NCBI RefSeq assembly: GCF_019428685.1
Contig: NZ_CP080095.1
Location: 2,542,001-2,606,000 of the forward strand
Length of the DNA: 64,000 bases
DNA from: Paraburkholderia edwinii
Lineage (GTDB): Bacteria > Pseudomonadota > Gammaproteobacteria > Burkholderiales > Burkholderiaceae
Direction: 5' to 3'
Under the pieces are notes generated by a model. The model was not told the origin of the DNA. It did no database searches and saw only the letters and a program-made list of their open reading frames with translations. The position numbers and the translations under genes were made by a program. The stretch's first letter is position 1, and every line of letters begins with the position of its first letter. Below are positions 3,489 to 42,284 of the stretch, piece by piece.

Positions 3489-4730
3489 CTACGGCTTTGC
3501 AGCGCCTCGTTTCCGCGGCGGCGTGTCGCTGAACAAAATCGACCACTTCACTCCGCGCTCAGGTGCGGTCTGCACATCGAGTCGGCCGCCGATACCGTTC
3601 AGCATCAGACGTACGGTACGCAGCCCCGTGCTCTCCAGCGCAGCAGCCGGCAAGCCGTGCCCATTGTCCGAAATTGTTACGGCGCACAGGTCGTCTGCCT
3701 CGCGCGTCATCGAAACCGTAATCTGCCCCTCGCTACCGCCGAATGCGTGCTCGACGGAATTGGCGACGAGTTCATTCACGATCGTTCCGACGGTCGTACA
3801 CGTATCGAGGTCGACGTCGATGCCGAACTGAAGTTCGATCTTCAACGCGATGCCGCTGGTCCTCAATGCATAGAAGTCGTCGAAGCTCGCCGCCATTGCG
3901 CTCAGATAACGCCCGAGATCGGCACGTTCTGCCTGGACGCTCAACCCAAGCAGGTGGTCGTATAGCGATGCCATCGCAAACACGCGGCGCTCGATGTCGC
4001 GCAGATTTTTACGGCAGCCGTCGTCGGTCGTCTGAAGCACGCTGCGTTGAACCATCGCAATGATCAGCTGGAAGTTGTTGCGGATTCGATGTTGCTGCTC
4101 GCGCAGTAGCACTGCTTTCGCGTCGCGTTCGACGATAAGCGCGGCGCGTGCATGGATCTTTTCGATGTTGTCCGCCAGTACGCCTGCGACGACTGCAAGG
4201 AACGAGATGTGAAAGGCGCCGATCTGCGTCGGCTCGGGAAAGTCCACTTCGAGGATGCCATAAGGTCCGTCATGGTTGATCAACGGAAGACTCACCGACG
4301 TGACGACGTTGTTGTCCTTCAGGATGTCAGGCAGCGACTCGGGCGGGCGCCGGCGCACATCAATGTCGATCACCGGCTCGGCATTCTTTAGCGCCTCGCC
4401 GGCTGGATTACCTTCCACCGCTTTCCCTGCAGTCCGGCCGATTGCGCCAGCGGGCATTCCACACTGGCTCTTCAGCACCAGCGTGTCGTCTGTACGGTCG
4501 ATCTCCAGAATTTTAGCCATGGGCGCGGGACATCCTTGCGCGGCGGTATGCACTGCGCCGTTTAGCACCTGTTGCAGTGGCGCCTCTCCCTGCGAGGCCT
4601 CGATCATCCTTGCGATCAATTGCCGCTGCCGCAATACGTCGCTCAACGACACCATGTCGTTGGGGTCGGCGACGATACGGCTCAATGACGCAGCCAACGT
4701 TGCTGCTTGCGCGGTTCCCATTCTTGCCAC
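3489..4730 (-). CDS. GAF-domain sensor histidine kinase, HWE/HisKA_2 type
   Basis: This soluble kinase has 413 residues. A GAF-like sensory domain spans about residues 35-195. A HisKA_2 segment follows with the phospho-acceptor His214 in EQQHRIRNNFQL. The C-terminal ATPase domain carries the N box (NELVANSVEHAFG, Asn324) and DNGHG (from Asp355). HWE/HisKA_2 kinases often work in light or general-stress signalling with separate receivers. No cognate response regulator is adjacent. The annotated start is a GTG without a clear ribosome site; an ATG nine bases downstream is an alternative. No membrane segments are visible. Confidence 0.85.
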   Translation of the reverse strand: MARMGTAQAATLAASLSRIVADPNDMVSLSDVLRQRQLIARMIEASQGEAPLQQVLNGAVHTAAQGCPAPMAKILEIDRTDDTLVLKSQCGMPAGAIGRTAGKAVEGNPAGEALKNAEPVIDIDVRRRPPESLPDILKDNNVVTSVSLPLINHDGPYGILEVDFPEPTQIGAFHISFLAVVAGVLADNIEKIHARAALIVERDAKAVLLREQQHRIRNNFQLIIAMVQRSVLQTTDDGCRKNLRDIERRVFAMASLYDHLLGLSVQAERADLGRYLSAMAASFDDFYALRTSGIALKIELQFGIDVDLDTCTTVGTIVNELVANSVEHAFGGSEGQITVSMTREADDLCAVTISDNGHGLPAAALESTGLRTVRLMLNGIGGRLDVQTAPERGVKWSILFSDTPPRKRGAAKP

Positions 4731-28968: not shown

Positions 28969-29955
28969 CTATGCATGAGTCGCGACAGCCGCAGCCGTGC
29001 GCGCGGCGCCGATCACGGACGTGAAATAGCGCGCCGTTTCGCGCAAGCCGTGTTCAAGCGACGTATGCGGCGTCCAGCCGATCAGGCGCGTCGCGAGCGA
29101 GATATCGGGTTGCCGGCGGCACGGGTCGTCCACGGGCAGCGGCCGGAATTCGATCGGAGACGATGAACCGGTGATCGCTTTGGTACGCTGCGCGATTTCA
29201 AGCATGGATACTTCGCACGGATTGCCGAGATTGACCGGACAGCCGGGATCTGACGGCAGATTCATCAGACGCACAAACGCATCGATGATGTCGTCGACAT
29301 AGCAGAACGAGCGTGTTTGCGAGCCGTCGCCATAAACCGTCAATGGCCTGTTTTCCAGCGCCTGCATCATGAAGTTCGACACGACGCGGCCGTCGGCCGG
29401 ATGCATGCGCGGCCCATATGTATTGAAGATTCGCGCGATGCGGATGTCGAGCCCGTGCTGCCGCCGGTAGTCCATAAAGAGTGTTTCCGCGCAGCGTTTG
29501 CCTTCGTCGTAGCACGAGCGCGGGCCGATCGGGTTAACGTTGCCCCAATAGTTTTCCGTTTGCGGATGCACGCGCGCATCGCCATAGACTTCGCTCGTCG
29601 ACGCCTGGAAGATTTTCGCCTTTACGCGTTTGGCGAGCCCGAGCATATTGATCGCGCCGTGTACGCTCGTTTTGGTCGTCTGCACGGGGTCTTGCTGATA
29701 GTGGACCGGCGACGCGGGGCATGCGAGGTTGTAGATTTCATCCACTTCCACATATAGCGGAAACGTCACGTCGTGGCGCATCAGCTCGAAGTTCGCGCAG
29801 TCGAGCAGGTGTGCAATGTTGTCCTTGGTTCCCGTGTAAAAGTTATCTACGCATAGCACGTCGTGGCCTTGCGTCACGAGGCGCTCGCATAGATGCGAGC
29901 CGAGAAAGCCGGCGCCCCCTGTGACGAGAATCCGTTTGCGTGTCAGTTCTTTCAT
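28969..29955 (-). CDS. UDP-glucuronate decarboxylase-like SDR
   Basis: This 328-residue NAD-dependent sugar epimerase/dehydratase family enzyme carries [14 protein letters not shown] at the N-terminus, TSEVYGD, and the YDEGK catalytic Tyr-Lys pair. The pattern, including [14 protein letters not shown] and [20 protein letters not shown], is that of UDP-xylose synthase, which converts UDP-glucuronate to UDP-xylose. GGGAG six bases upstream supports the ATG at 29955. It is the last gene of the minus-strand glycan operon, 49 bases after a glycosyltransferase gene, and probably supplies a pentose donor. Confidence 0.88.
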
Positions 29956-30004
29956 GTGCTGCTCCCTGTCTCCACGATTTTCCGTTGTGCCGCGCATCGC
30001 TTTG

Positions 30005-30958
30005 CTAGCTGCTGACCCGCGATAGCGCTTCGAGCCAGTCGCGCACGAAGCGGTCGATATGAAACCGTTCGCGCGCGGTGCGGCGCGCCGCATAGCCGAG
30101 CGAACGCGCGTGCGCCGGATCGCGCAGCAGGCTTTGCATCGCCTTGACGAGCACCTCGCGGTCGGTATGCACGTAGCCGTTTTCGCCGTTGCGTACGACA
30201 GTGGAGAGTTCAGTCGTCGCAAAGCCGACGACCGGCATGCCGATCGTCATCGCTTCGACGATCGCGAGGCCGAGGCTCGTCCAGCGGATCGGATTGAAAA
30301 AGAAGCGGTAGCGCGCGCTAAAGGCGGCGAGTTCGAGATTCGGTATTTCGCCGATGCCGCCGCTTTGCGCCGCATCCATGCCGACGAGGTCGAGCGGTAC
30401 GCGCTCGCGCATCGCCTCGAACAGGTCCGCGCCGAGCCGGCGGCCGCGCCGCGCCAGATGGTTGACGACGACGATGCCGCGCTCCAGTTCGCCGCTGTAC
30501 TGCACGTCTTTCGGCACGAGCACGCCATGTTCGATCACGCACGTCGGCGTCGCGCCGCAGTCCCAGACCAGTTCGTTGAAATGCGTGACGTGCACGAGCA
30601 GCGTGTGCCGATCGTCGACCCAGTGCTTCTGTTCGTACGGGTTGTCGAGCGGCGGGTCGTGCTCCAGATAGATGCGCGGCAAGCGCTGCTGCGCTGCCGA
30701 CAGCGCATGCTGGCGGTCGTGGTCCCAATGCACGCGATGCTGATACAGCACGACGTCGAATTCCTGCGACGCGACAGCGTCGACCGGCACTTCATGCACG
30801 TTGTCGCCCCACGGCAGCGTGCCGTTGCGGCCCGCGTAGCCGGGCGGGTGACCGGGCTTCGTGACGAGATAGAAGTCGTGCGGGACTTGAGTGAGGTAGT
30901 ACAGGTAGTTGCCGTGTACATGCCAGGTGAGGATGCGCAGGCGTCGGTTAGCGGGCAT
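30005..30958 (-). CDS. Glycosyltransferase, GT4-like
   Basis: The 317-residue protein has a GT-B architecture. [16 protein letters not shown] starts the first Rossmann domain, VIEHGVLVP is the acceptor-domain signature, and [23 protein letters not shown] holds the donor-binding E-x7-E-like motif. Donor and acceptor are unknown. GGGAGG before the ATG at 30958 fixes the start, which overlaps the end of the preceding GT9 gene by 11 bases. Homologues often lie in LPS or capsule clusters. Confidence 0.85.
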
Positions 30959-32096
30959 GGGGCGCCTCCCTGCGTACGCTTGATGACGCGGGCACGTCAG
31001 GAATGTATGCGGCCGCAGCATGTTCGCCCGTCGCGTGCATCGTGGCGGCATGGTTCCCAAGCTGCTCGCGCGCGGCCTCGACCACGCGCTCGACACCGAC
31101 GTTCAACGCGCATTCGTGCCCATATGGGCAGTCGCGGAACGCGCACGGCCGGCACGGCGGATAGTCGGCGAGCACGCGATGCAACTGATGGTCGAGCGGC
31201 GCCCAGCGGCGCGTGTCGCTGCCCGACGCGACCACCACGCTCGCGGTTCGCATCGCCGCCGCAATATGCGAAATGCCGGTGTCGTTGCAGACGACGAGCC
31301 GCGCATCGCGCACGAGCGCAGCGAGCGCGCCGAGCGAAGTGGCGCCCACGAGATGCAGCGCCGGCCCCGCCATCGTGCCGAGCAGGCGGCCCGAGATTTC
31401 GATTTCCGACGCGGTGCCCGTGATTGCGATGCGCCAGCCGTCCGCAGCGAGCGCGTCGGCCACTTTGGCAAAGCGCTCGGCGGGCCAGCGCCGCGACGGC
31501 AATTGCGCGCCGGGATGTACGACCACGAGCCGCTCGACCACGATGCGGTGCATCGCAACGAGGGCCACGTGCTCGGAGAGATCCTGCGGCGTCAATTCGA
31601 ACGCGAGCGCGTCGCTGTCGGCCGGCGCGCCGAGTGCGCCAGTCAGCGCGAGATAGCGGCGCGGTTCGGGCAACGTATCGGGCCATGCGATAAAGCAGCC
31701 GTCGCGCGTTTCGCCGGGCTGCACGAAGCCTGCATACGCGCGTGCGCCGAACTGGCCGACGATGTCGTTCGCGACGCCGCCGCTGCCGTGCAACTGGATG
31801 GCGAGATCGAAGCAGCGTTCGCGCATGGCGGCGGTGAAGCCGGGCAGGGCGGATTCGTCTTCGCGCTGTTCGGGAAAGCCTCGCGCGCCAGGGAACACGA
31901 TCAGTTCGTCGAGCAGATCGCTAAAGCGTTCGACGAAGCTCTTTGCCCACGGCAAGCCGATCAGCGCGATATGCGCGTGTGGTGCCGCGCGGCGCAGTGC
32001 GCGCAAGGCGGGCACGCTACAAAGCATGTCGCCTAGCTGAAGCGCTCTGAAAATGACGATGCGCTTCGTTTCCGACAATTCGGTCATCGCGCTCAT
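30948..32096 (-). CDS. Glycosyltransferase family 9 (heptosyltransferase-like)
   Basis: This 382-residue GT9 enzyme begins with RIVIFRALQLGDMLCSVPALRAL, the standard N-terminal signature, and carries VVHPGAQLPSRRWP and CNDTGISHIAAA in the donor domain. GT9 enzymes usually transfer ADP-heptose to LPS-type acceptors. A C-terminal CRPCAFRDCPYGHEC segment may bind a metal and recurs in the second GT9 here. The ATG overlaps the upstream GT2 stop (ATGA) and AAGGTGG lies seven bases before it. Confidence 0.88.
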   Translation of the reverse strand: MSAMTELSETKRIVIFRALQLGDMLCSVPALRALRRAAPHAHIALIGLPWAKSFVERFSDLLDELIVFPGARGFPEQREDESALPGFTAAMRERCFDLAIQLHGSGGVANDIVGQFGARAYAGFVQPGETRDGCFIAWPDTLPEPRRYLALTGALGAPADSDALAFELTPQDLSEHVALVAMHRIVVERLVVVHPGAQLPSRRWPAERFAKVADALAADGWRIAITGTASEIEISGRLLGTMAGPALHLVGATSLGALAALVRDARLVVCNDTGISHIAAAMRTASVVVASGSDTRRWAPLDHQLHRVLADYPPCRPCAFRDCPYGHECALNVGVERVVEAAREQLGNHAATMHATGEHAAAAYIPDVPASSSVRREAPHAR

Positions 32097-33118
32097 AGAA
32101 AGACCACCTTGAAGCGAAGTGCGCCATACAGACGCCAATACACCGACAGAAACGGAATCAGCAGCGACGTCCATGCCATTTCCGCGAGATGACGCCCGTC
32201 GCGCCGCGTGTGGCGCAGGCGTTGCACGCAGAATCCGGCGGTCAGCGACGCCCACACGAAAGCCGCGCATGCAGCGAGCGCGCCGACGCCCGCGAGACCC
32301 GCGATCATCGCGCAAGCGGCGCTCGCGACGATCGCGTAGTAGCGCAGCGGCGGGTGCGCGTCGATGCGTTGCCGGTACATCCTGGGATGCTTGCTGAACA
32401 GCAGCGCTTCAAAAGCGCTCTTTTTCTGCTGATGCAGACTTACGCCCCAGCGCGCGGGGCGGACCGGATGGACGACGATGGCGTCGTCGGCGCGCACGAT
32501 GCGGTAACCGGTGTTCAACAGCGTGAAGTGCAGGTCGGAGTCTTCGCGCCAGGCCGCCGTGAAGCGCTCGTCGAAGCCGCCCGTCGCTTCAAGCGCCGCG
32601 CGGCGCACGAACACGTTCGCCGTCGCGAATTCGGCGCGCGCGAGGCCGCTGGCGTCAAGTTCGTAGTCGGTCGGGTGCTCGGGTAACGGCATGACGATGC
32701 GGCCGGATACGGCGTCGGCGTTTGCATGGCTCGCTGCCGCGAGGCCCGATGCGAGCCACAGCGGGTCGGGGATCGTGTCGTCGTCGGTGAACGCGATGAG
32801 CGGCGCGCGGGCGATGCGCCAGCCGGCATTGCGCGCGCCGGCCGGGCCTTGCGTCGCGGTGACCGGCACGTAGCGGACGGCGAGGCCGCGTGGTGCGTGC
32901 TCCGCTGCGACGCGGTCGACATACGCGCGCGTGGCAAGATCGCCGGGGCCATCGTCGCAGATCACGATTTCGTAGCGTGTGCAATCGAATTGCTGTGCGG
33001 CTAGTGCGTTCAGGCAACTCGCGAGCATGGCGGGACGACGGTAAGTCGGCACCACGATTGAAATGTCGGGCTGAGCGAACGCCGGCGCGTCGGCTGACTC
33101 CTCGCGCATCGCATTCAT
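32093..33118 (-). CDS. Family 2 glycosyltransferase with C-terminal membrane helices
   Basis: The 341-residue protein starts with ISIVVPTYRRPAMLASCL, has the metal-binding FTDDDTIPDP (DDD) motif, and a catalytic WREDSDLHF motif. Two hydrophobic segments near residues 265-305 suggest that it is tethered to the inner membrane. It belongs to the inverting GT2 family; donor and acceptor are unknown. Its ATG overlaps the stop of the carbamoyltransferase gene and its stop overlaps the next GT9 start, so the three are translationally coupled. Confidence 0.87.
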   Translation of the reverse strand: MNAMREESADAPAFAQPDISIVVPTYRRPAMLASCLNALAAQQFDCTRYEIVICDDGPGDLATRAYVDRVAAEHAPRGLAVRYVPVTATQGPAGARNAGWRIARAPLIAFTDDDTIPDPLWLASGLAAASHANADAVSGRIVMPLPEHPTDYELDASGLARAEFATANVFVRRAALEATGGFDERFTAAWREDSDLHFTLLNTGYRIVRADDAIVVHPVRPARWGVSLHQQKKSAFEALLFSKHPRMYRQRIDAHPPLRYYAIVASAACAMIAGLAGVGALAACAAFVWASLTAGFCVQRLRHTRRDGRHLAEMAWTSLLIPFLSVYWRLYGALRFKVVFL

Positions 33119-34872
33119 CGCGTGGCCCCCGCACTGCCGGCAGCCGACCCTGCCTTCTCGACGATAAACGACCCAATGACCAGCGCATCGAGCGGCGACG
33201 TCCAGAACGACTCCACCGCATCGCGCGGCGAATTGACCATCGGCTCGCCGCGCGTATTGAACGACGTGTTGACGAGCACCGGCACACCGGTCCGCCGGTA
33301 AAACGCGTCGAGCAGACTGTAGTAAAGCGCATGCTGCTCGCGATTGATGGTCTGCACGCGCGCCGTGCCGTCGACGTGGCGCACCGCGGGAATCCGGTCC
33401 GCTTTTTCTTCGCGCACGTCGAAGATAAACAGCATGAACGGCGCGCGTTGACCGCCGACGAACCAGTCCGCCGCATGCTCTTCCATTACGACGGGCGCGA
33501 CGGGCCGGAAATCCTCGCGATCCTTGATTTCGTTCAGACGCGCCTGCATGCCGGGGTCGATCGGCGACGCGAGAATCGACCGCGCGCCGAGCGCGCGCGG
33601 ACCGAACTCGGTACGCCCCTGGTACCAGCCGAGCACCTTGCCGGCGGCCAACATATCGGCGGCTTCGCCGGCAATATCGGCAGCACGGCGATATGGAATT
33701 TTCGACCACTTCAGAAACCGCTCGACTTCGTCGTCCGCATACTGAGGGCCGAGATAGGCGTGATCCATTGTCCAGTGCCGCGCGCGCTCGCCGCGCTGAC
33801 GGTAGTCGGTCCACAAGGCCGCGCCTAGCGCGGTGCCCGCGTCGCCGGCGGCCGGCTGCACCCATACGTGTTCGAACGGCCCTTTGTCGCGCACCTTCGA
33901 GTTCATCACGCAGTTCAGCGCCACGCCGCCCGCCATGCAGAGCCGCGACAGGCCCGTTTGCTGGTGCAGCCAATGCGCGAGCTGAAGCACGGTTTCTTCG
34001 AGCACGCACTGCAGCGAGCTCGCGATATCGTAGTGACGCTGCTCGAGCGGGCCGCCGCGTTCGCGTGCAGGACCGAAACGTTCGACGAGCCGCGGTGCAT
34101 CGACCGTATAACTACCGTCCTGATTTACCTTGACGATTTCGCGGAACGCGTCCGCATAAAGTGGCTTGCCGAACGACGCGAGCGCCATCACCTTGTACTC
34201 ATCCGACGAGTGCAGAAAGCCGAGCCAGCCCGTCACCGCTTCGTAAAGCAGTCCAAGCGAATGCGGCAGTTCGACCTGGCGCAGCCGCTCGTACTTGCCG
34301 TCGATGAAACGTCCCATGCTCGTCGTCACGCCTTCGCCGCGGCCGTCCATCGTCAGGACCGCGCAATCGTCGAATGGGCTCGCGAGAAACGCGCTCGCTT
34401 CATGCGAAAGATGGTGATCGACGAAATGCCATTCGAAGCCGTTATTGCGGTCGACCCCGCGAAAGCGTTTCGCGAGGTGATGCGGCGCGCCGTCGAGCAG
34501 TTGCGCCTTGGCGTTCGCGATATAGCTGAGAAAAAGCGGGTCCCACGGCGATTCGGATGGATTCGTCGCCCGCTGCCGCGTGGGGTCGAACGGTAACGCA
34601 ATCGTTGCGCCCGGCGCCTTCGGCATGCCGGAAAAGAGCGCAGGGTCATACGAATAGGCGACGTGATCGACATCCTTGAGCGTGATACCCGCCTCGGACA
34701 GGCAGTAGTCGATCGCATCGAACGGCAATTGCCATGTCGAAAACGGCACGGGCCGTTTCGCGTGCTTCACGTGCGTAAAGCGTTCGTCTTCGGCGGCCGC
34801 CAACACGACACCGTCTTGCAGCAGCGCGGCGGCGCTGTCGTGATAAACCGCATTGATTCCGAGTGTGTACAT
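33115..34872 (-). CDS. NodU/CmcH-type carbamoyltransferase
   Basis: The 585-residue enzyme has the N-terminal ASKHA-fold start MYTLGINAVYHDSAAALL, HHLSHEASAF, SSDEYKVMALASFG, and the C-terminal GRTEFGPRALGARSIL motif of the carbamoyltransferase family. Members use carbamoyl phosphate and ATP to O-carbamoylate sugars of Nod factors, antibiotics or LPS. Its place among GT9 and GT2 genes suggests decoration of a surface glycan. The start is supported by a purine-rich site upstream, and the gene follows a GT9 gene by 47 bases. Confidence 0.92.
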   Translation of the reverse strand: MYTLGINAVYHDSAAALLQDGVVLAAAEDERFTHVKHAKRPVPFSTWQLPFDAIDYCLSEAGITLKDVDHVAYSYDPALFSGMPKAPGATIALPFDPTRQRATNPSESPWDPLFLSYIANAKAQLLDGAPHHLAKRFRGVDRNNGFEWHFVDHHLSHEASAFLASPFDDCAVLTMDGRGEGVTTSMGRFIDGKYERLRQVELPHSLGLLYEAVTGWLGFLHSSDEYKVMALASFGKPLYADAFREIVKVNQDGSYTVDAPRLVERFGPARERGGPLEQRHYDIASSLQCVLEETVLQLAHWLHQQTGLSRLCMAGGVALNCVMNSKVRDKGPFEHVWVQPAAGDAGTALGAALWTDYRQRGERARHWTMDHAYLGPQYADDEVERFLKWSKIPYRRAADIAGEAADMLAAGKVLGWYQGRTEFGPRALGARSILASPIDPGMQARLNEIKDREDFRPVAPVVMEEHAADWFVGGQRAPFMLFIFDVREEKADRIPAVRHVDGTARVQTINREQHALYYSLLDAFYRRTGVPVLVNTSFNTRGEPMVNSPRDAVESFWTSPLDALVIGSFIVEKAGSAAGSAGATR

Positions 34873-34919: not shown

Positions 34920-36119
34920 TTATTGCGCGAGCCGCTGCGGTTCGTCGTCCTCGGGCTGTGGCACCGCGCGCGAACGGATTTCGTCGAGCAGGTCGAGCGT
35001 CGCGTCGACGACGTCCCGCGTTTCGACGCCGAGCAGGCAAGCGTGATGCCCGTAAGGGCAGACGCTGCGATAGCACCAGCGGCACTCGACGTCGTGAAAC
35101 AGCACACGATGCGGCGTTTGCCATGGGGCGTGCTGCGGGTTCGTCAGCGCGTAAAGGTCAACCACCGGCGTGCCCAACGCGGACGCAATATGCACGGGGC
35201 CGCTGTTGTTCGAAATCAGCACGCGCGTGCGTTCGATCAGCGCCGCGAATGCGCCCAGATCGAGTGCGCCGGTCAGGTCGTGAATCCACGGGCGACAAGC
35301 GGGCGGCGCCGATGCGCGCAAAGTGTGCGCAAGCGCGGCTTCGCCGGCGCTGCCTGTGACGAGCACGTTCATACCGGTTTCGCCGATCAACCGCGCCGCT
35401 GCGCCGCCGAAGCGTTCGGCCGGATAGCGGCGCGATTCGGCCGTGGCGCCCGGATGCATGACGATAAATGGCTGCGTAGCGTCGATGCCGCATGTGCCGA
35501 GGGCGGTATCGAGGGCGATCCGCGCGGCGTCCGTGACGATCATGCGCATCCGTGTGTCGTCGGTGTGGGCGCCGATTGCGTTGACGAGCGATAGCTGGCG
35601 CAGCACTTCGTGTTGCGTGCCTTGCTCGGGCTCGTGTTCGGGCACCCAGTCGCTGATCAGCGCATAGGGGTTTTCGCGGCATCGTGCGAGCCGGCGTTCG
35701 ATGCCTGACAGGTAGCAAAGCGTCGCTGCGCCGAGCGGGTTCTGGCTGTAGACGGTGAAGATGGCCGCTGCGTCGAAGCCGCGCATTTTTAGCTGTGCGT
35801 GCATCGCGAGGTCGGAGGCGATGCTGGTCGATGAGCGGTGGCCGGCCCACGGGGCGTCGTAGCGGATCACGTCGTCGACGTCGGGTAGAAACGGTGCGAG
35901 CGCGCAGCCGGCCGACGAGGTCAGCAAGGTCAGACGCCGGCCCGGCGCGGCGCTGCGCAAGGCGTGAAGCGCGGGCGTGGTCATTAGCACGTCGCCGAGG
36001 TTGTCGGTGCGGACGCACAAGATGCGCTTCACGTCGGCGCCCCAAGCGTCGAGCGGTTTCGCGGCGGTGAGACGCGCGTGAGCGGTGATGGGCTTCGCGA
36101 GGGCGGAGAGGCTTTTCAT
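34920..36119 (-). CDS. Second GT9 glycosyltransferase
   Basis: This 399-residue GT9 enzyme carries ILCVRTDNLGDVLMTTPALHAL, VMHPGATAESRRYPAERF and ISNNSGPVHIASALG, all diagnostic of heptosyltransferases. Like the other GT9 here it ends with a CRWCYRSVCPYGHHACL cluster, so the two probably share ancestry and may act in sequence on the same glycan. The ATG overlaps the stop of the phosphatase gene upstream (ATGA), with GAGG six bases before it. It precedes the carbamoyltransferase gene by 47 bases. Confidence 0.88.
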   Translation of the reverse strand: MKSLSALAKPITAHARLTAAKPLDAWGADVKRILCVRTDNLGDVLMTTPALHALRSAAPGRRLTLLTSSAGCALAPFLPDVDDVIRYDAPWAGHRSSTSIASDLAMHAQLKMRGFDAAAIFTVYSQNPLGAATLCYLSGIERRLARCRENPYALISDWVPEHEPEQGTQHEVLRQLSLVNAIGAHTDDTRMRMIVTDAARIALDTALGTCGIDATQPFIVMHPGATAESRRYPAERFGGAAARLIGETGMNVLVTGSAGEAALAHTLRASAPPACRPWIHDLTGALDLGAFAALIERTRVLISNNSGPVHIASALGTPVVDLYALTNPQHAPWQTPHRVLFHDVECRWCYRSVCPYGHHACLLGVETRDVVDATLDLLDEIRSRAVPQPEDDEPQRLAQ

Positions 36120-36844
36120 GGCTTGGCCTCGCGCGTCGGGTGGCATGTGGTCGCGGTGGCATCGACGGCATTGCCCACATCGATGGCATCGCCGGTATCG
36201 CCCGCAGCCGCCCGCTCGTGGTCGCAGGCAATGAGCCGCGCCGCCACGTGCAGGTCGCCCACATGCGCAAACGGCGCGCGCCGCGGCCCGTTGCGCCATT
36301 CCGTCTCGTTGCCGTTATCGAGCAGAATCGTGCGGCAGCCCGCGCGATTACCGGCTTCGACATCGTCAAGAATGTCGCCGACGAGCCACGACGCGCGCAG
36401 ATCGATCTGGTGGTCGTTTGCGGCTTGCACCAGCATCCCGGCCGCCGGCTTGCGGCACTCGCATGCGCATGCATACGGGCCGACATGCCCGCGCGGATCG
36501 TGCGGACACCAGTAAAAGCCATCGAGCGCCGCTCCGCATGACGCGAACATCGCGCGCAACTGGTGCTCGACCGCATCGAGCGCCTCGACCGCGAAACGGC
36601 CGTGCGCCACGCCGCCCTGATTGCTGACGACGATCAACCGGTACGGATACAGCGCGAGCAATTCGAGCGCCGCACGCGCGCCCGGCGCAAAGCGCATCTT
36701 GCGAGGGTCGACGTTGTACGGCACGTCGTTGAGCACCGTACCGTCCTTGTCGAGAAAGACGGCGCGCTCAGAAGGGCCGCCCGGCAAGCGCCCATGCGCG
36801 CGATCCGACGCTGGCCTGAAGACCGGATTTTCAGCGTGGGCCAT
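36116..36844 (-). CDS. HAD phosphatase, GmhB-like
   Basis: The 242-residue protein belongs to the HAD-IIIA branch. AVFLDKDGTVLNDVPYNVDP gives the nucleophile Asp and general acid Asp, IVVSNQGGVAHG the second motif, and CPHDPRGHVGPYACACECRKP the zinc-binding loop plus motif III, followed by LVGDILDDVEAGNRAGC. This matches D-glycero-D-manno-heptose 1,7-bisphosphate phosphatase, which would feed the two GT9 enzymes. The C-terminal 30 residues are a low-complexity Asp/Ala/Thr tail. The gene overlaps the GT9 start by ATGA. Confidence 0.85.
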   Translation of the reverse strand: MAHAENPVFRPASDRAHGRLPGGPSERAVFLDKDGTVLNDVPYNVDPRKMRFAPGARAALELLALYPYRLIVVSNQGGVAHGRFAVEALDAVEHQLRAMFASCGAALDGFYWCPHDPRGHVGPYACACECRKPAAGMLVQAANDHQIDLRASWLVGDILDDVEAGNRAGCRTILLDNGNETEWRNGPRRAPFAHVGDLHVAARLIACDHERAAAGDTGDAIDVGNAVDATATTCHPTREAKP

Positions 36845-36943: not shown

Positions 36944-38245
36944 CTAGCCGTAAGCGCCTCCGACGGCCGAACGGGCGCCTTGCGCACTCGCCGTTGCGTC
37001 GTCGCGCTCGCGCGGCTGCGGCAGCCTCGCGACGCGCCGGTACACGTTTTCAAGCGATTGCGCGACGCCTTGCCATGTGAACTGCGCCCGGGCGCGCGCC
37101 AGACCGGCCTCGCCCATCTGCCGCGCGCGCGCCGGGTTCGCATGCAGTTGCGCGAGCCGTGCGGCAAGCGCCGCCGGATCGCGCGGCGGCACGAGCCAGC
37201 CTGTCTCGCCGTCGCGGACCGAATAGCGGATGCCGCCGACGTCGGCGCCGATCACCGGCGTGCCGCAGGCCATCGCTTCGACGGGCGTGATGCCGAACGG
37301 CTCGTACCACGGTGTCGTCACGAACACGTCGGCGGCACTGTAGAAGAGGCCCAGATGCGAGCGGCCGCGCCGGCCGACGAAGGTTGTCTGTGCAGCAACC
37401 TGCTCATGCGCGGCGATGCCGCGCAGGCGCGCGATTTCAGGCGTCGCGATCTCGTTCGGCGATTCGGAATTGCCGCCCACGATATAGAGGCGTGCGCTCA
37501 CGCCGTGATCGCGCTGCAACGCGCCGACGCCGCGAATCACGTTATCGATGCCCTTGCGCTGCACGATCCGGCCTAGCTGCAGCACGATGAACTCGTCCTG
37601 CGACCAGCCGAGGGCCGCCCGCGCTTCGCGCTTCGAGACACGCGTCAATTCGTCGACGTCGAAGCCGCACGGTACGATCTCGATTCGTTCGGGATCCGCA
37701 TCGTACAGTTTGATCAGATCGATTTCATCCTGCGGGCATTCGGCAATGACCGCATCCGAATCGCGGACGAGCTCGTCTTCGATCGCGAAGCGTTCGTCGG
37801 GGAAGCCGTCGTCATCGCCTTGATGGATGCGCCGCACGCGGCCGAGCGCATGGAATGTCGTGACTACGGGGATCTTCAACGCGCGCTTCACTTTTAGCGC
37901 GACCATGCCCGACATGAAGAAATTCGCGTGCATCAGGTGGTACGGGCGGCGTTCCTGCGCGAAGAACGGCACAAGAAAATCAGCGAACTCGTTCATGTAC
38001 GGCAGCAGGCGCTCCTTCGCGAGTTGCCGCGGCGGGCCTGCCGGAACGTTGATTACCCGAATACCATCCATTTCGGACACTAGCGGTAACAGCGACCGGT
38101 CGCGTCGCGTGAACACGTCGACCTCGTGACCCGCTCGATGCAACTGCCGCGCAACGTTCGCGACATAAATATTCTGTCCGCCACTGTCGACGCTGCCGGC
38201 AAGCGCCAGCGGCGACGCGTGTTCGCTGATCATGGCGATCTTCAT
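36944..38245 (-). CDS. GT4 glycosyltransferase, sucrose-phosphate-synthase-like
   Basis: The 433-residue retaining GT-B enzyme begins with MKIAMISEHASPLALAGSVD and SGGQNIYVANVARQL, a motif seen in sucrose-phosphate synthase and related GT4 proteins. The donor domain has QLGRIVQRKGIDNVI and PWYEPFGITPVEAMACGTPVIG, the E-x7-E motif. GAGGA precedes the ATG at 38245. It is probably the first gene of the minus-strand glycan operon, 99 bases upstream of the GmhB-like gene and divergent from the ABC exporter gene. Confidence 0.9.
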   Translation of the reverse strand: MKIAMISEHASPLALAGSVDSGGQNIYVANVARQLHRAGHEVDVFTRRDRSLLPLVSEMDGIRVINVPAGPPRQLAKERLLPYMNEFADFLVPFFAQERRPYHLMHANFFMSGMVALKVKRALKIPVVTTFHALGRVRRIHQGDDDGFPDERFAIEDELVRDSDAVIAECPQDEIDLIKLYDADPERIEIVPCGFDVDELTRVSKREARAALGWSQDEFIVLQLGRIVQRKGIDNVIRGVGALQRDHGVSARLYIVGGNSESPNEIATPEIARLRGIAAHEQVAAQTTFVGRRGRSHLGLFYSAADVFVTTPWYEPFGITPVEAMACGTPVIGADVGGIRYSVRDGETGWLVPPRDPAALAARLAQLHANPARARQMGEAGLARARAQFTWQGVAQSLENVYRRVARLPQPRERDDATASAQGARSAVGGAYG

Positions 38246-38623
38246 TGGGGTTCCTCTTCGTTCATGGTCGGGCGGTGTCTGGAGATGGCCGCGTTGATTG
38301 ACTTTCAGCGCCGCGGCGCATGCAGCAGTTTCAGCATCCGTTGTGCCCAACGATGAGTACAGGCGTTTCCAACGAACGCCACCGCACGCATTGTTTTTTC
38401 GCCGCGCGCGTTTTTTCGAAGTGCTGTGGCGATCCCCGATTTACACACTGCATGTAAGAAGGTGGGCGATGTATACGCGATGAACACACGCTATAGCGCC
38501 GCTTCAGGCCGCGTCGCGGGTGAATCGAACGAAGCGCGAACGAAGCGTGAACAGACCGCGAGCCGGGACCGAATCTCGCTCGCCTGCCAAAACGTCTTGT
38601 GATCACGCAACCGGAAAGTGAAG
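38246..38623. other. Divergent promoter region between glycan operon and ABC-receiver gene
   Basis: These 378 bases separate two divergent transcription units: the GT4-led glycan operon (minus) and the ABC fusion (plus). Short AT-richer patches occur near 38380-38400 and 38440-38490, but I cannot assign -35/-10 boxes. No gene is supported. Confidence 0.5.
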
Positions 38624-41437
38624 ATGGCGCCAACCGATTTTCGGCAGAACGAGCGGGAAAACAGCGGGGAAAATCGCAGGCAATTGCGCAAGCGCATCAC
38701 AGCCGACCTCTGGCATGCGCTCCTGACGTACCGCGGCATCACGCTTGCGTCGTTCGCGTTGATGATCGTCGGCAAACTCGCCGCGGTCGGCATGCCGCTC
38801 GTGCTCCGCGAGATCGTCGACGAGCTCGGGCATCCGGTGTCGCTCGCGCTGCTGCCGGTATTTCTGGTGCTCGCGTATGCGCTGATGCGCTTTCTTGCCG
38901 ATGCGCTCAACGAAGCGCGCGATGTGGTGTTCAGCGTCGTCACCCAGCGAACTGTTGCATCGTTCACGGAACGGACCTTCGCGCATCTGCATCGGCTCGG
39001 CGCGCGCTTTCATGCGCAGCGCGAGACGGGCTCGGTCGTGCGCGACGTGCAGAAGGGCGCCGACGGCATCGGCTTTCTGCTCGGCACGGCAATCTTCGCG
39101 ATCGTGCCGACCTTCGTCGAGATCGCCACGATCGTCGTCATCATCGCGCGCGGCTATTCGTGGGGCTTTACCGCGGTAATCGCGTTGACCTTCGTTTGCT
39201 ATGCGATCTATACCTATGTGTTCACGCAGCGGCGCCTCGCCGTGCAGCGGCGCGTCAATGCGCTCGAGGCGCAGTCCGACGCGCGGCTCGTCGACAGCAT
39301 GCTCAACTACGACACGGTTAAATTCTTCGCGACCGAACACGTCGAAACGCGGCGCCTGACGGAAGTGCTCGAACAGTGGATCGACGCGCGCATCGCGAAC
39401 CAGCGCGCACTCACCACCTTGCACATCGGCCAAAGCGCGGTGGTCGCTGCCGGAATCGCCGCGATGCTATTGATCGCGGTGCAGGACGTGCTGCTCGGGC
39501 GCATGACGGTAGGCGACCTCGTGCTCGTGAACGCGTACATCGTTCAAGTCTGCATGCCGCTCAATACACTTGGCTTCGTGTTCCGCGAGACCAACGACGC
39601 GAAGGTCAACGTCGAGCGGATGTTCGGGATTCTCGCGGCGCGAGGCGTGCAAGGAGAAGATGTCGATTTGCCTCAAGCGCGGCCACTCGTCGTGACCGAC
39701 GGCGCGATCGAGTTCGCGCATGTCGACTTCGCCTACGATGCGTCGCGACCTGTGCTGCATCACGTGCATTTCCGTGTGCATCCGGGGCACCGGCTCGCGG
39801 TGGTCGGCGGCAGCGGGTCGGGCAAATCGACGCTCGTGCGGCTGCTGTTCCGCCTCTATCAGCCCGGCGCGGGCCGCGTGAGCATCGACGGCCAGGACTT
39901 GCGCGAGGTCACGCAAAAGAGCGTGCGCGAAGCGGTCGGCATCGTGCCGCAGGACACCGTGCTGTTCAACGATACGATTGCGTACAACATCGCGTACGGC
40001 CGGCCCGGCGCGACGCGCGCCGATATCGTGCGGGCCGCGCGCGCCGCGCAGCTCGATGAATTTATCGAGCGCCTGCCCGATCACTATGACACGCGCGTCG
40101 GCGAACGCGGCCTGCGGCTATCGGGTGGCGAGCGTCAGCGCATCGCGATCGCGCGCGCGATTCTGAAAAACCCGCGCATCATCGTCTTCGACGAAGCGAC
40201 ATCGGCGCTCGATACGCGCTCGGAACGCGCGATCCAGGCCGAACTGAACCGGCTCGCGCACGGCCGCACCTCGGTGGCGATCGCGCACCGGCTGTCGACG
40301 GTCGTCGACGCCGACTGGATTCTCGTGATGGAGCACGGGCGCATCGTCGAGCAGGGCGCGCACGACGATCTGCTCGCGCGCGACGGCGTCTACGCGAAAA
40401 TGTGGGCGCTGCAATGGCAGCAGGGCGAACTCGAGCATATGCAGCGCAAGGTGTCGGCGCAGGCGGTCGAACTCGGTCCGCTCGTCGCCGCGGTGGGCGA
40501 CGATCTGCGCAATGAGATGGCGCGTCGCCGGGTGCGCTGGCACGTATCGATGCCCGACGGTGCGTTGTGCGCGACGGGCGACCGGTTCGATCTCAAGCAG
40601 ATTGTGGCGAGCTTGTGCCGCAACGAGATCGAGCACGCGGGTGCGGGCGAGACGGTCGACGTGCGCGTCGAGCGGCGCGCGAATCATGCGTGGCTGAGCG
40701 TGTCCGGTGCGCGCGAGCGGCCCGGCGAGATGCCTGAAGAAGCGGCGCGGCGCATCGAGGCGAAGCTGTCGGCATTGGGCGGCGGCTTCACGGCGACGCA
40801 GGTCGGCAAGCGCGTCGCGTATGCGGCGGTGATTCCGCTCAGGCCGGTGGTCGAAGCGTCGGCGCTGGAAAAATACGTCACCGGAGTCGAGGCTGAATCT
40901 GACGCCGACGCCGCGGCGAATACGGCGAACGCGAACACCGCGCAGGTGCAGCCAGCCGATGCCGAGGCTTCGCAAGCTGTGCATCCGGCTCTGCTGGAGG
41001 AACCGCTTGCCGGCATAACCGTACTTGCGCTCGACGACCAGGAGGAAGCGCGCGACGCGCTAGAAGCGGTGCTGAGCGCGAGCGGCGCACACGTATTGCT
41101 GGCCGAATCGGGCGACGATGTGCTGCAGCTTCTTGCCGACACCCCCAAGCGGACATGGCCGCAGGTGTTTCTCTGCGACATCGTGCTCGGCCACGAAGAT
41201 GGCTATGAAGTGCTCAAGCGCTTACGCGACCTCGAAGCCGCGCAGGATGCCGCGCTCGATGCCGATCGCGCGGCCCAGCATCTGCCGGCAATCGCGCTGA
41301 CCGGCTATACGGAACCGTCGGCAGGCGCCGCTGCCCGCGCGCTGCAAGAGGGCTTTGCCGCGCATCTGACTAAACCTGTCGCTGCGGCAGTTCTGATCGG
41401 GACGATTCGCGACGTGGCGCACGCGCGTCGAGTCTGA
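38624..41437 (+). CDS. ABC exporter fused to kinase-ATPase-like and receiver domains
   Basis: This 937-residue protein has three parts. Residues 25-335 form a six-helix ABC exporter domain of the ATM1/HMT1 type. Residues 355-595 form the nucleotide-binding domain: Walker A GGSGSGKST (395-403), LSGGERQ (499-505), Walker B IIVFDE (519-524) and the H-loop His555. Residues 615-743 resemble the ATPase domain of a histidine kinase (GDRFDLKQIVASLCRNEIEHA holds an N-box-like Asn667), but no phospho-acceptor His or DxGxG box is visible. Residues 796-935 form a receiver with Asp804/Asp805, phosphoacceptor Asp852, Thr893 and Lys917. I chose the ATG at 38624 with GGAAAG upstream; a GTG lies at 38618. The substrate is unknown. 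The 3' end overlaps a convergent GT2 gene. Confidence 0.88.
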   Translation: MAPTDFRQNERENSGENRRQLRKRITADLWHALLTYRGITLASFALMIVGKLAAVGMPLVLREIVDELGHPVSLALLPVFLVLAYALMRFLADALNEARDVVFSVVTQRTVASFTERTFAHLHRLGARFHAQRETGSVVRDVQKGADGIGFLLGTAIFAIVPTFVEIATIVVIIARGYSWGFTAVIALTFVCYAIYTYVFTQRRLAVQRRVNALEAQSDARLVDSMLNYDTVKFFATEHVETRRLTEVLEQWIDARIANQRALTTLHIGQSAVVAAGIAAMLLIAVQDVLLGRMTVGDLVLVNAYIVQVCMPLNTLGFVFRETNDAKVNVERMFGILAARGVQGEDVDLPQARPLVVTDGAIEFAHVDFAYDASRPVLHHVHFRVHPGHRLAVVGGSGSGKSTLVRLLFRLYQPGAGRVSIDGQDLREVTQKSVREAVGIVPQDTVLFNDTIAYNIAYGRPGATRADIVRAARAAQLDEFIERLPDHYDTRVGERGLRLSGGERQRIAIARAILKNPRIIVFDEATSALDTRSERAIQAELNRLAHGRTSVAIAHRLSTVVDADWILVMEHGRIVEQGAHDDLLARDGVYAKMWALQWQQGELEHMQRKVSAQAVELGPLVAAVGDDLRNEMARRRVRWHVSMPDGALCATGDRFDLKQIVASLCRNEIEHAGAGETVDVRVERRANHAWLSVSGARERPGEMPEEAARRIEAKLSALGGGFTATQVGKRVAYAAVIPLRPVVEASALEKYVTGVEAESDADAAANTANANTAQVQPADAEASQAVHPALLEEPLAGITVLALDDQEEARDALEAVLSASGAHVLLAESGDDVLQLLADTPKRTWPQVFLCDIVLGHEDGYEVLKRLRDLEAAQDAALDADRAAQHLPAIALTGYTEPSAGAAARALQEGFAAHLTKPVAAAVLIGTIRDVAHARRV

Positions 41438-42284
41438 CCGCGTCCAGCATTGCCACGACGCGATCGGGTACGCACCGGCGTTCGCGCAGCGTCCACTTAA
41501 GGCCGCGGAGCAACGCGAATCCGTCCAGCCACAACGTCCCTTCGTTGCGAAAGCAGCCGAATGCGCGTGCCGTCGCGCGCAACGCGTCCATGACGGGCAA
41601 CCGTTGCCACGCAGTCCATGCCGCATTGCGCGCAAGCATCCGCCGACGCAGCGCGCTGTCGCGCAACGGCGAAGGATGATGCGAGATCGTGCATGCCGGG
41701 CAGTAAACAATCGCGTGTCCGGCGGCAAGCACATCGAGCGCCATGCGCTCCTCCTCTCCGCCAATGAAATAGCGCGCGTCGTAGCCGCCCATCTGCCGGA
41801 ACACGGACGTGCGCATGACCGACGCGCCCGCCATATAACCGACCAGCGACGGCCCCGGCAAACCGGTCGCATCGAGCGGACTCATCCGCATGACGGTCGA
41901 GACCGGATCGGTAGCGCCGTCGACGCCGACCTCGATGCGTGCGTTCAGAATCCCTACCCGTGGATACGCGTCGAGCAGCCGTACAGCCCGAGCGAGCGAT
42001 CCGGGCTGCCACCACGTGTCGTCGTCGCAGAACGCGACGTAATCGGTGCGCGCACGATTGACCGCAAGGTTGCGGCCGGCCGCGCCGAGATTGGCGCCGC
42101 ATTGCACGATAGTGACGTCGGGGAACAGCAGGGCGGCCATGCGCACGGTGTCGTCGGCGGAGCCGTTGTCGGCAACGATAATCGGCGGGCGTTCGGGCAG
42201 GGCACGAAGCCGCGTTAAGGTATCGACGAGTTGCGCCATGCGGTTATGGGTCAGGACGACCACGGAAATTCTCGATTCGGGCAT
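41370..42284 (-). CDS. Family 2 glycosyltransferase
   Basis: The 304-residue protein carries ISVVVLTHNRMAQLVDTL, the FCDDDTWW metal-binding motif, and GGEEERMALDVLAAGH, typical of GT2 enzymes such as rhamnosyl- or glucosyltransferases. AGGAAAG lies immediately before the ATG at 42284. Its last 68 bases overlap the 3' end of the convergent ABC-receiver gene, so both reading frames use the same DNA there. It faces the glycan operon across the ABC gene and probably works on the same or a related polymer. Confidence 0.87.
   Translation of the reverse strand: MPESRISVVVLTHNRMAQLVDTLTRLRALPERPPIIVADNGSADDTVRMAALLFPDVTIVQCGANLGAAGRNLAVNRARTDYVAFCDDDTWWQPGSLARAVRLLDAYPRVGILNARIEVGVDGATDPVSTVMRMSPLDATGLPGPSLVGYMAGASVMRTSVFRQMGGYDARYFIGGEEERMALDVLAAGHAIVYCPACTISHHPSPLRDSALRRRMLARNAAWTAWQRLPVMDALRATARAFGCFRNEGTLWLDGFALLRGLKWTLRERRCVPDRVVAMLDAVRLDARAPRRESSRSELPQRQV

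What the first reader, a model, noticed from the sequence alone, without database searches (positions are those of the whole stretch)
38624..41437. ABC exporter carrying a kinase-ATPase-like segment and a receiver domain
One polypeptide combines a complete ATM1/HMT1-type exporter (Walker A, signature, Walker B, H-loop), a segment patterned on the N-terminal half of a histidine-kinase ATPase domain, and a receiver with all catalytic residues (Asp804/805, Asp852, Thr893, Lys917). I know of no characterised transporter with this order. Export could be switched by phosphorylation of the receiver, or the exporter could signal through it. The gene is divergent from a carbamoylated-glycan operon, so its cargo could be a glycan precursor or a glycolipid.
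Basis: partly seen in the sequence, partly recalled or inferred. Interest (0 to 1): 0.8.

Follow-up and report, generated by a model that had tools for sequence, protein, structure and literature searches.

The report
Exporter with a built-in phosphorylation switch
A bacterial membrane pump next to sugar-building genes carries a broken kinase piece and a working-looking phosphorylation switch on its tail, suggesting that bacteria can gate an exporter directly with their two-component signalling chemistry.

Summary
Window 38624-41437 is one clean 937-residue frame: an Atm1-like ABC exporter, then a histidine-kinase ATPase domain, then a receiver with every catalytic residue. The middle segment is not half a kinase ATPase but nearly the whole fold with the ATP lid (about 25 residues) and G boxes gone, so it should not bind ATP. 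No phosphoacceptor helix is found. The tail aligns collinearly with hybrid kinases (profile E 1.9e-45).

The fusion forms one clade. 65 of 200 sampled genomes of the window's family carry it; none of 100 matches outside that family in a 369-genome class sample has the tail. Receiver residues are complete in 57 of 65, kinase G boxes in 0 of 65. All 65 carry the neighbouring carbamoyltransferase, 63 within 15.1 kb.

Best reading: an exporter gated by phosphorylation of its own receiver through a dead-kinase adaptor, tied to that glycan cluster. Gating, phosphodonor and cargo are inferred. Against a glycan cargo: six of 71 cluster-bearing genomes show no intact fusion gene, and the pocket keeps six of eight Atm1 glutathione-site residues. 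No structure model was obtained. A new variant of a known kind.

The parts
38624..41437 (+). whole gene, 937 aa: ABC exporter + degenerate HATPase + receiver
   Evidence: GTG at 38618 is an alternative start
38747..39562 (+). ABC transmembrane domain, residues 42-313
   Evidence: Pfam ABC_membrane E 7.9e-29
39755..40204 (+). ABC nucleotide-binding domain, residues 378-527; Walker A K401, Q-loop Q443, signature G501 G502, Walker B D523 E524 (D-loop D530 and H-loop H555 follow)
   Evidence: Pfam ABC_tran E 5.2e-34; these residues identical in 51 of 51 rows of A1
40448..40846 (+). degenerate histidine-kinase ATPase domain, residues 609-741; N-box position 664-672; ATP lid and G boxes missing near residues 695-712
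   Evidence: hhalign E 7.9e-15; PDB profile search E 1.2e-11; G boxes in 0 of 65 genomes, N-box Asn in 13 of 65
40847..41014 (+). variable linker, residues 742-797
   Evidence: varies in length between relatives; highest dN/dS of the five regions in 7 of 7 pairs
41021..41407 (+). receiver domain, residues 800-928; acidic pair D804/D805, phosphoacceptor D852, T893, K917
   Evidence: Pfam Response_reg E 2.4e-12; D805, D852, T/S893 and K917 all present in 57 of 65 genomes
36944..38350 (-). divergent neighbour, glycosyltransferase group 1 (frame as listed, start uncertain)
   Evidence: Pfam
36116..36844 (-). HAD-type phosphatase; heptose-bisphosphatase-like by recall
   Evidence: Pfam Hydrolase_like
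34920..36299 (-). glycosyltransferase family 9 (heptosyltransferase), start uncertain
   Evidence: Pfam
33115..34872 (-). carbamoyltransferase of the glycan cluster
   Evidence: Pfam Carbam_trans_N and _C; co-occurrence
32093..34009 (-). glycosyltransferase family 2 (listed frame over-extended upstream)
   Evidence: Pfam
30948..32315 (-). second glycosyltransferase family 9, start uncertain
   Evidence: Pfam
30005..31096 (-). glycosyltransferase group 1
   Evidence: Pfam
28969..30222 (-). NAD-dependent sugar epimerase/dehydratase, start uncertain
   Evidence: Pfam
41370..42284 (-). glycosyltransferase family 2 on the other side of the exporter, convergent with it; 3' ends overlap by 68 bases
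   Evidence: Pfam; coordinates

Best explanation
A half-size, presumably homodimeric Atm1-like ABC exporter that has captured the C-terminal half of a hybrid histidine kinase. The captured kinase ATPase domain has lost its ATP lid and the phosphoacceptor helix in front of it, and now serves as a dead-kinase adaptor below the nucleotide-binding domains. The receiver behind it keeps a complete phosphorylation site. I propose that a separate histidine kinase, a histidine phosphotransfer protein or a small phosphodonor phosphorylates Asp852, and that the phosphorylated receiver changes how the two ATPase domains dimerise, so opening or closing export. The exporter serves the product, or an intermediate, of the adjacent carbamoyltransferase/heptosyltransferase cluster. 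Shown by sequence: domain order, collinear kinase ancestry, loss of kinase motifs, conservation of the receiver site, one fused clade, genomic linkage. Inferred: phosphorylation in the cell, effect on transport, donor, cargo.
For: Tail aligns end to end with HATPase-receiver of six hybrid kinases, E 1.9e-45, starting after their HisKA region and skipping the lid. Kinase G boxes 0 of 65 and N-box Asn 13 of 65, while D805/D852/T-S893/K917 are complete in 57 of 65 and in 51 of 51 of a second set that shares some genomes with it. Purifying selection: dN/dS 0.06-0.28 for the dead ATPase, 0.04-0.29 for the receiver, 0.16-0.74 for the linker, 0.01-0.08 for the NBD, over 7 pairs. One fused clade, support 97/85. 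Linkage: 65 of 65 fusion genomes carry the cluster carbamoyltransferase against 6 of 135 without the fusion, and 32 of 32 against 2 of 85 inside the genus. In 47 of 57 loci compared the exporter has at least one cluster gene beside it, in differing orders and orientations. None of the cluster genes scanned with Pfam is a second flippase or exporter (an Nramp and an MFS transporter lie just outside the cluster). Precedents: Rv1747, an exporter positively modulated by the kinase PknF (PMC3908365, abstract); EpsW~P, a receiver that activates a glycan enzyme post-translationally, with evidence of direct contact (PMC12802240, abstract and passages).
Against: No structure model and no experiment. 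Six of 71 cluster-bearing genomes have no detected intact fusion gene; four of them hold pieces of it beside cluster genes, so the exporter is not indispensable to keeping the cluster. Five genomes of one genus lack the receiver with a clean end while keeping the dead ATPase. Unfused kin occur in Massilia agri, without a detected carbamoyltransferase, and in Noviherbaspirillum, whose carbamoyltransferase is not in the fetched flanks of the exporter. Six of eight glutathione-site residues of Atm1 are kept. I saw no kinase shared between the neighbourhoods I read.
Confidence: 0.5

Rival explanations
1. An Atm1-like exporter of glutathione conjugates, persulfides or metals, with cargo unrelated to the glycan; the receiver gates it in a stress response, and the linkage to the glycan cluster only reflects shared regulation or joint gain and loss.
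For: Closest solved structure is an ATM1-type exporter (4mrn, NaAtm1), E 3.8e-148; T197, R204, Q270, L313, G317 and R321 match six of the eight conserved AtAtm3 glutathione-site residues (PMC9000953 passage; mapping); an unfused relative without a detected carbamoyltransferase in Massilia agri; pieces of the exporter gene beside kept cluster genes in several genomes.
Against: The other two site residues are replaced, R328 to Q208 and N387 to H267, in 65 of 65 and in both unfused kin examined; the genome has a separate Atm1 (L002, E 1.3e-178 to plant ABCB25/AtAtm3) that keeps all eight; the cluster link holds in 65 of 65 genomes.
Confidence: 0.27
2. The exporter signals outward: transport state alters the receiver, which acts as phosphate sink or output for another kinase, as in transporter-coupled two-component systems (recalled).
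For: Best structure hits of the tail profile include kinase-attached receivers, a kind often used in relays (recalled).
Against: No shared kinase, phosphotransfer or DNA-binding partner seen beside the gene in the neighbourhoods read.
Confidence: 0.13
3. The tail is a decaying relic with no function.
For: The ATPase segment diverges fast and has lost its motifs, the receiver is absent in one genus, and broken exporter copies exist.
Against: Receiver catalytic residues complete in 57 of 65, with two of the eight misses frameshift-like and one a contig end; dN/dS of both domains well below 1 and below the linker in 7 of 7 pairs.
Confidence: 0.1

Closest known systems
Atm1/ABCB7-type exporters (NaAtm1, 4mrn)
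   Same: match over residues 19-599, E 3.8e-148; ATPase motifs; six of eight glutathione-site residues
   Different: R to Q and N to H in the site, separate clade beside the genome's own Atm1, about 330 extra residues at the C terminus
Hybrid histidine kinases (HisKA-HATPase-receiver)
   Same: tail aligns collinearly with HATPase plus receiver, E 1.9e-45
   Different: no HisKA hit, no G boxes, no ATP lid; attached to a transporter instead of a sensor
Rv1747, FHA-domain ABC exporter modulated by kinase PknF (PMC3908365 abstract)
   Same: ABC exporter tied to a cell-envelope product and modulated by a kinase
   Different: Ser/Thr kinase and FHA domains (FHA: abstract start of PMC5549992 in the listing) instead of a two-component receiver
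EpsW-EpsZ of Myxococcus (PMC12802240 abstract and passages)
   Same: a receiver that controls glycan machinery post-translationally by protein contact; the paper also mentions receiver domains in small phosphoglycosyl transferases
   Different: separate single-domain receiver acting on the initiating enzyme, not fused to an exporter
DivL and RetS (hits)
   Same: HATPase fold matched by the same profile; that these act as atypical or pseudokinases is recalled
   Different: not part of a transporter (recalled)

Membership tests
ABC exporter (ABC_membrane + ABC_tran half-transporter) | complete transmembrane and nucleotide-binding domains with Walker A, signature, Walker B, H-loop | tested here: met
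   motif residues in 51 of 51 rows
Atm1/ABCB7 subfamily | conserved glutathione-site residues T, R, R, N, Q, L, G, R (PMC9000953 passage) | tested here: not met
   6 of 8 met; R328 to Q and N387 to H in 65 of 65
Atm1/ABCB7 subfamily | falls inside the Atm1 clade | tested here: not met
   the 17 fused and 2 unfused kin form a clade (99/97) beside six Atm1-like rows including the genome's own Atm1; midpoint root, long outgroup branches
Hybrid histidine kinase | HisKA/DHp phosphoacceptor helix | tested here: not met
   no HisKA hit up to E 1; profile match starts after that region of the kinases
Hybrid histidine kinase | N, G1, F and G2 boxes for ATP binding | tested here: not met
   G boxes 0 of 65, N-box Asn 13 of 65; lid gap of about 25 residues
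Response-regulator receiver | acidic pair, phosphoacceptor Asp, Thr/Ser, Lys | tested here: met
   window protein; family 57 of 65
Response-regulator receiver | accepts phosphate on the Asp | not testable with these tools
   needs biochemistry
Glycan or glycolipid exporter | transports the product of the adjacent cluster | tested here: inconclusive
   65 of 65 co-occurrence, but six of 71 cluster genomes have no detected intact fusion gene

The most novel reading that the evidence does not exclude
The receiver is charged directly by carbamoyl phosphate, a known small phosphodonor for receivers and presumably the co-substrate of the neighbouring carbamoyltransferase. The exporter would then open only when the cell can finish the carbamoylated glycan: a metabolite-gated ABC exporter in which two-component chemistry is used without any kinase, with the dead kinase domain as the mechanical coupling.
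Probability: 0.08. Interest if true: 0.85.

Novelty: new variant of a known kind. Interest (0 to 1): 0.6.

Why it matters
Bacterial receivers mostly act on DNA, enzymes or motors (recalled). A receiver built into an ABC exporter, conserved across genera with its phosphorylation site intact behind a kinase ATPase that can no longer work, would be direct post-translational gating of export by two-component signalling, and a case of a dead kinase reused as a transporter part. It also gives a handle on a carbamoyltransferase/heptosyltransferase cluster of Burkholderiaceae for which I found no description in the held papers (one search).

Tried and rejected
Frameshift or assembly join between 40400 and 41000: rejected, same order of parts in relatives from other genomes.

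Unrelated fold for residues 615-743: rejected; the family profile hits histidine-kinase structures and hybrid kinases.

Hidden active kinase in some members: rejected for those examined, G boxes 0 of 65 and 0 of 51.

Fusions outside the family: in a class sample of 369 genomes, 101 had a match at E 1e-165 or better, one of them the window's own. Reported coverage alone is not a safe test, because in the family search many fused genes are also reported only to about residue 745. So I read the ends of 22 of the 100 others, among them all with a listed open frame over 700 aa: 48-71 residues follow the H-loop motif, no tail. The other 78 have listed open frames of at most 694 aa, too short for the fusion.

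Shared partner kinase next to the gene: looked for in the loci, none seen; a kinase beside the cluster in L111 was not seen in the others read. No genome-wide search for a partner was made.

Structure prediction of the whole chain: asked 17 times, always answered that 100 jobs were waiting; no model, so no fold search.

Papers: nine searches. Searches (15 of 22 listed; 3 of 3; 12 of 24 listed; none found) were aimed at an ABC exporter with a receiver or at surveys of receiver architectures; no listed title describes such a protein. Of these I opened by word search only PMC1183210 and PMC4618731, and PMC13257379: no passage on this architecture. for the cluster gave one paper, on Laribacter, not opened. 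Subscription papers are mostly not held, so absence here is weak.

A first motif count picked up only 18 of 65 genomes because of a too strict filter and was replaced. The dN/dS script stopped with an error at the eighth of ten pairs; seven are reported. One search failed on a file name and was not needed.
Full report
What is there. Window 38624-41437 (+) is a single 937-aa frame in an assembly of two contigs and 8.3 Mb. Homologues and loci that bear names are Paraburkholderia, Caballeronia, Chitinasiproducens and Cupriavidus. Pfam finds a complete ABC transmembrane domain (42-313), ABC ATPase (378-527) and receiver (800-928); HATPase_c appears at 652-694 with E 0.015, below its cut-off. The closest solved structure is the ATM1-type exporter 4mrn (NaAtm1) over residues 19-599, E 3.8e-148.

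The middle segment. A 26-row family profile of this segment (A2) searched against PDB sequences returns histidine kinases, best E 1.2e-11. Profile-profile comparison with six hybrid kinases found (A4) gives E 7.9e-15 for the segment alone and E 1.9e-45 for segment plus receiver. The alignment begins after the kinases' HisKA region, runs through the N-box, shows no DxGxG, skips about 25 residues that in the kinases hold the F and G2 boxes (the ATP lid), and resumes in the domain's C-terminal part. The best hits to the tail that are not fusions, in the protein collection, are also hybrid kinases, from E 1.2e-12. In the window's own genome a 1433-aa frame matches residues 612-928 at E 6.3e-13; I did not scan that frame.

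The receiver. Asp805, Asp852 and Lys917 are identical, and 893 is Thr or Ser, in 51 of 51 rows of alignment A1 (39 Thr, 12 Ser; Asp804 in 50 of 51). These 51 are 40 of the 69 top hits (P0001-P0069, two of which are fragments without the membrane domain and one of which, P0069, has a damaged receiver; I left these three out) and 11 of the 13 Cupriavidus loci. In a second set, one gene from each of 65 fusion genomes, which shares some genomes with the first, the four residues are all present in 57; of the eight misses, five belong to one genus (g11) in which the frame ends cleanly before a receiver, one gene runs off a contig (G058), and two look frameshifted (G099, G158). Kinase G boxes: 0 of 65; N-box Asn: 13 of 65. 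dN/dS over seven close pairs: NBD 0.014-0.077, TMD 0.014-0.163, dead ATPase 0.063-0.280, receiver 0.037-0.288, linker 0.160-0.738. Both tail domains are under purifying selection.

Distribution and origin. A protein search of 200 genomes of the window's family gave 71 with E 1e-170 or better, the window's own included; six of these (G022, G024, G043, G113, G137, G144) match only the ABC part (residues up to about 605) and I left them out, which leaves 65. In the genus, 32 of 117 match at E 1e-200 or better, one of them with stop codons inside (G584); the receiver was not counted there. In a class sample of 369 genomes none of the 100 matches outside the family has the tail: 22 were read at their ends, the other 78 have listed frames of at most 694 aa. 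A tree of the ABC part (33 rows) puts 17 fused rows in one clade (support 97/85; one change in 94% of 200 bootstrap trees), next to unfused genes of Massilia (L070) and Noviherbaspirillum (L069), and that group beside Atm1-like rows, including the window genome's own copy L002, whose best structure match is plant ABCB25 (AtAtm3), E 1.3e-178. The tree is drawn with a midpoint root and has long outgroup branches.

Neighbourhood. On one side lie, on the minus strand, a group-1 glycosyltransferase, a HAD phosphatase, two family-9 (heptosyl) transferases, a carbamoyltransferase, a family-2 and another group-1 glycosyltransferase and a sugar epimerase; on the other, a convergent family-2 glycosyltransferase whose 3' end overlaps the exporter gene. 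An Nramp-type and an MFS-type transporter lie just outside this stretch. Of 57 loci compared, 47 list the exporter with at least one cluster gene beside it, in different orders and orientations (L054 and L079 with only one gene); eight show exporter or remnant without a cluster gene (L046, L053, L055, L069, L070, L084, L088, L104), some of them short or at a contig end, and L075 and L086 show cluster genes without an exporter match over 40% of its length. All 65 fusion genomes carry the carbamoyltransferase (E 1e-150 or better); 71 genomes carry it in all (Fisher exact P 4e-46, which ignores relatedness). In 63 of 65 the two genes' start coordinates are 5.0-15.1 kb apart; G058 is split by a contig end (the rest of the receiver starts the other contig), G006 has them on different contigs. 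Within the genus 32 of 32 fusion genomes carry it, and 34 of 117 in all.

Results against a glycan cargo. Six of the 71 cluster genomes gave no fusion hit at that threshold (G037, G071, G080, G090, G102, G190). Pieces of the exporter gene remain in four: by tblastn in L108 (G071) and L110 (G090), by eye in frames of L109 (G080) and L111 (G102); in L107 and L112 none was found in about 20 kb. L086 is a further relic beside cluster genes. So lineages can lose the exporter and keep cluster genes. Massilia agri has an unfused relative and no detected carbamoyltransferase; Noviherbaspirillum has one, but not in the 21.7 kb around its exporter. Caballeronia megalochromosomata has a damaged fusion gene (777-aa frame, partial receiver) and no carbamoyltransferase hit. 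The pocket: eight AtAtm3 residues named as conserved in the glutathione site (PMC9000953, passage read) map to T197, R204, Q208, H267, Q270, L313, G317, R321; six are kept, two changed, identically in 65 of 65 fusions and in both unfused kin, while L002 and another Atm1-like row (L104) keep all eight. The two changes are shared with unfused kin, so they probably predate the fusion.

Mechanism. With no phosphoacceptor histidine found and no ATP site, the tail should not act as a kinase. The receiver must then be charged from outside: a separate kinase, a phosphotransfer protein, or a small donor. I propose that phosphorylation changes how the tails, and so the two ATPase domains, pair. Which direction (opening or closing) is unknown. 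Small donors, including acetyl phosphate and carbamoyl phosphate, are invoked for the receiver EpsW in PMC12802240 (passage), and the cluster contains a carbamoyltransferase, whose co-substrate would be carbamoyl phosphate (recalled); hence the novel case. In one genus the receiver is gone but the dead ATPase stays, which suggests that the latter has a role of its own, perhaps structural.

Comparison with the known. As a transporter it belongs to the ABC exporters and sits beside, not inside, Atm1. As a signalling module it is a hybrid-kinase remnant. Kinase-modulated ABC exporters are known (Rv1747/PknF, PMC3908365, abstract read), and a receiver acting on glycan machinery is known (EpsW, PMC12802240, abstract and passages), but in four searches aimed at it (listings, with three papers opened by word search) I saw no described ABC exporter with a receiver. 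The Pfam combination itself is already tagged in public databases, so the architecture is recorded though, as far as I could see, not studied.

Limits. No structure model: the prediction queue was full at 17 attempts (see Tried and rejected). Kinase partners were sought only in the neighbourhood, not genome-wide.

Noticed in passing
L056:12798-13352, L099:11378-11902, L087:11060-11629: In other lineages a small protein (174-189 aa), weakly HbpS-like in one of three (Pfam E 0.0014, below cut-off), directly follows or overlaps the exporter gene, before a short-chain dehydrogenase in L099. No match in the window's own genome. It could be a sensor partner.
   Followed up: partly
L096, L097, L098, L139, L140: Five genomes of one genus lack the receiver with a clean end but keep the dead ATPase domain.
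   Followed up: partly
L086, L108, L109, L110, L111: Pieces of the exporter gene lie beside kept cluster genes; in L110 an open 309-aa frame holds the start of the exporter and the receiver.
   Followed up: partly
L011 (G171), receiver region: The receiver carries a long insertion rich in Gly, Asn, Ser and Pro before its last strand.
   Followed up: no
window 40616-40618, residue 665: A cysteine in the dead ATPase domain is identical in 51 of 51 rows of A1 and in 54 of 65 of the wider set; possible redox role.
   Followed up: no
PDB 7ltq_A: A solved 'histidine kinase' aligns over nearly the whole dead ATPase segment (E 8.5e-11), so its own lid may be short too; no held paper names it.
   Followed up: partly
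window 3492-4730 (-): A GAF-HisKA_2-HATPase histidine kinase lies about 34 kb from the exporter gene.
   Followed up: no
G570 (Caballeronia temeraria, L046): This genome carries two copies of the cluster carbamoyltransferase on different contigs, and the exporter locus fetched has no cluster gene beside it.
   Followed up: no
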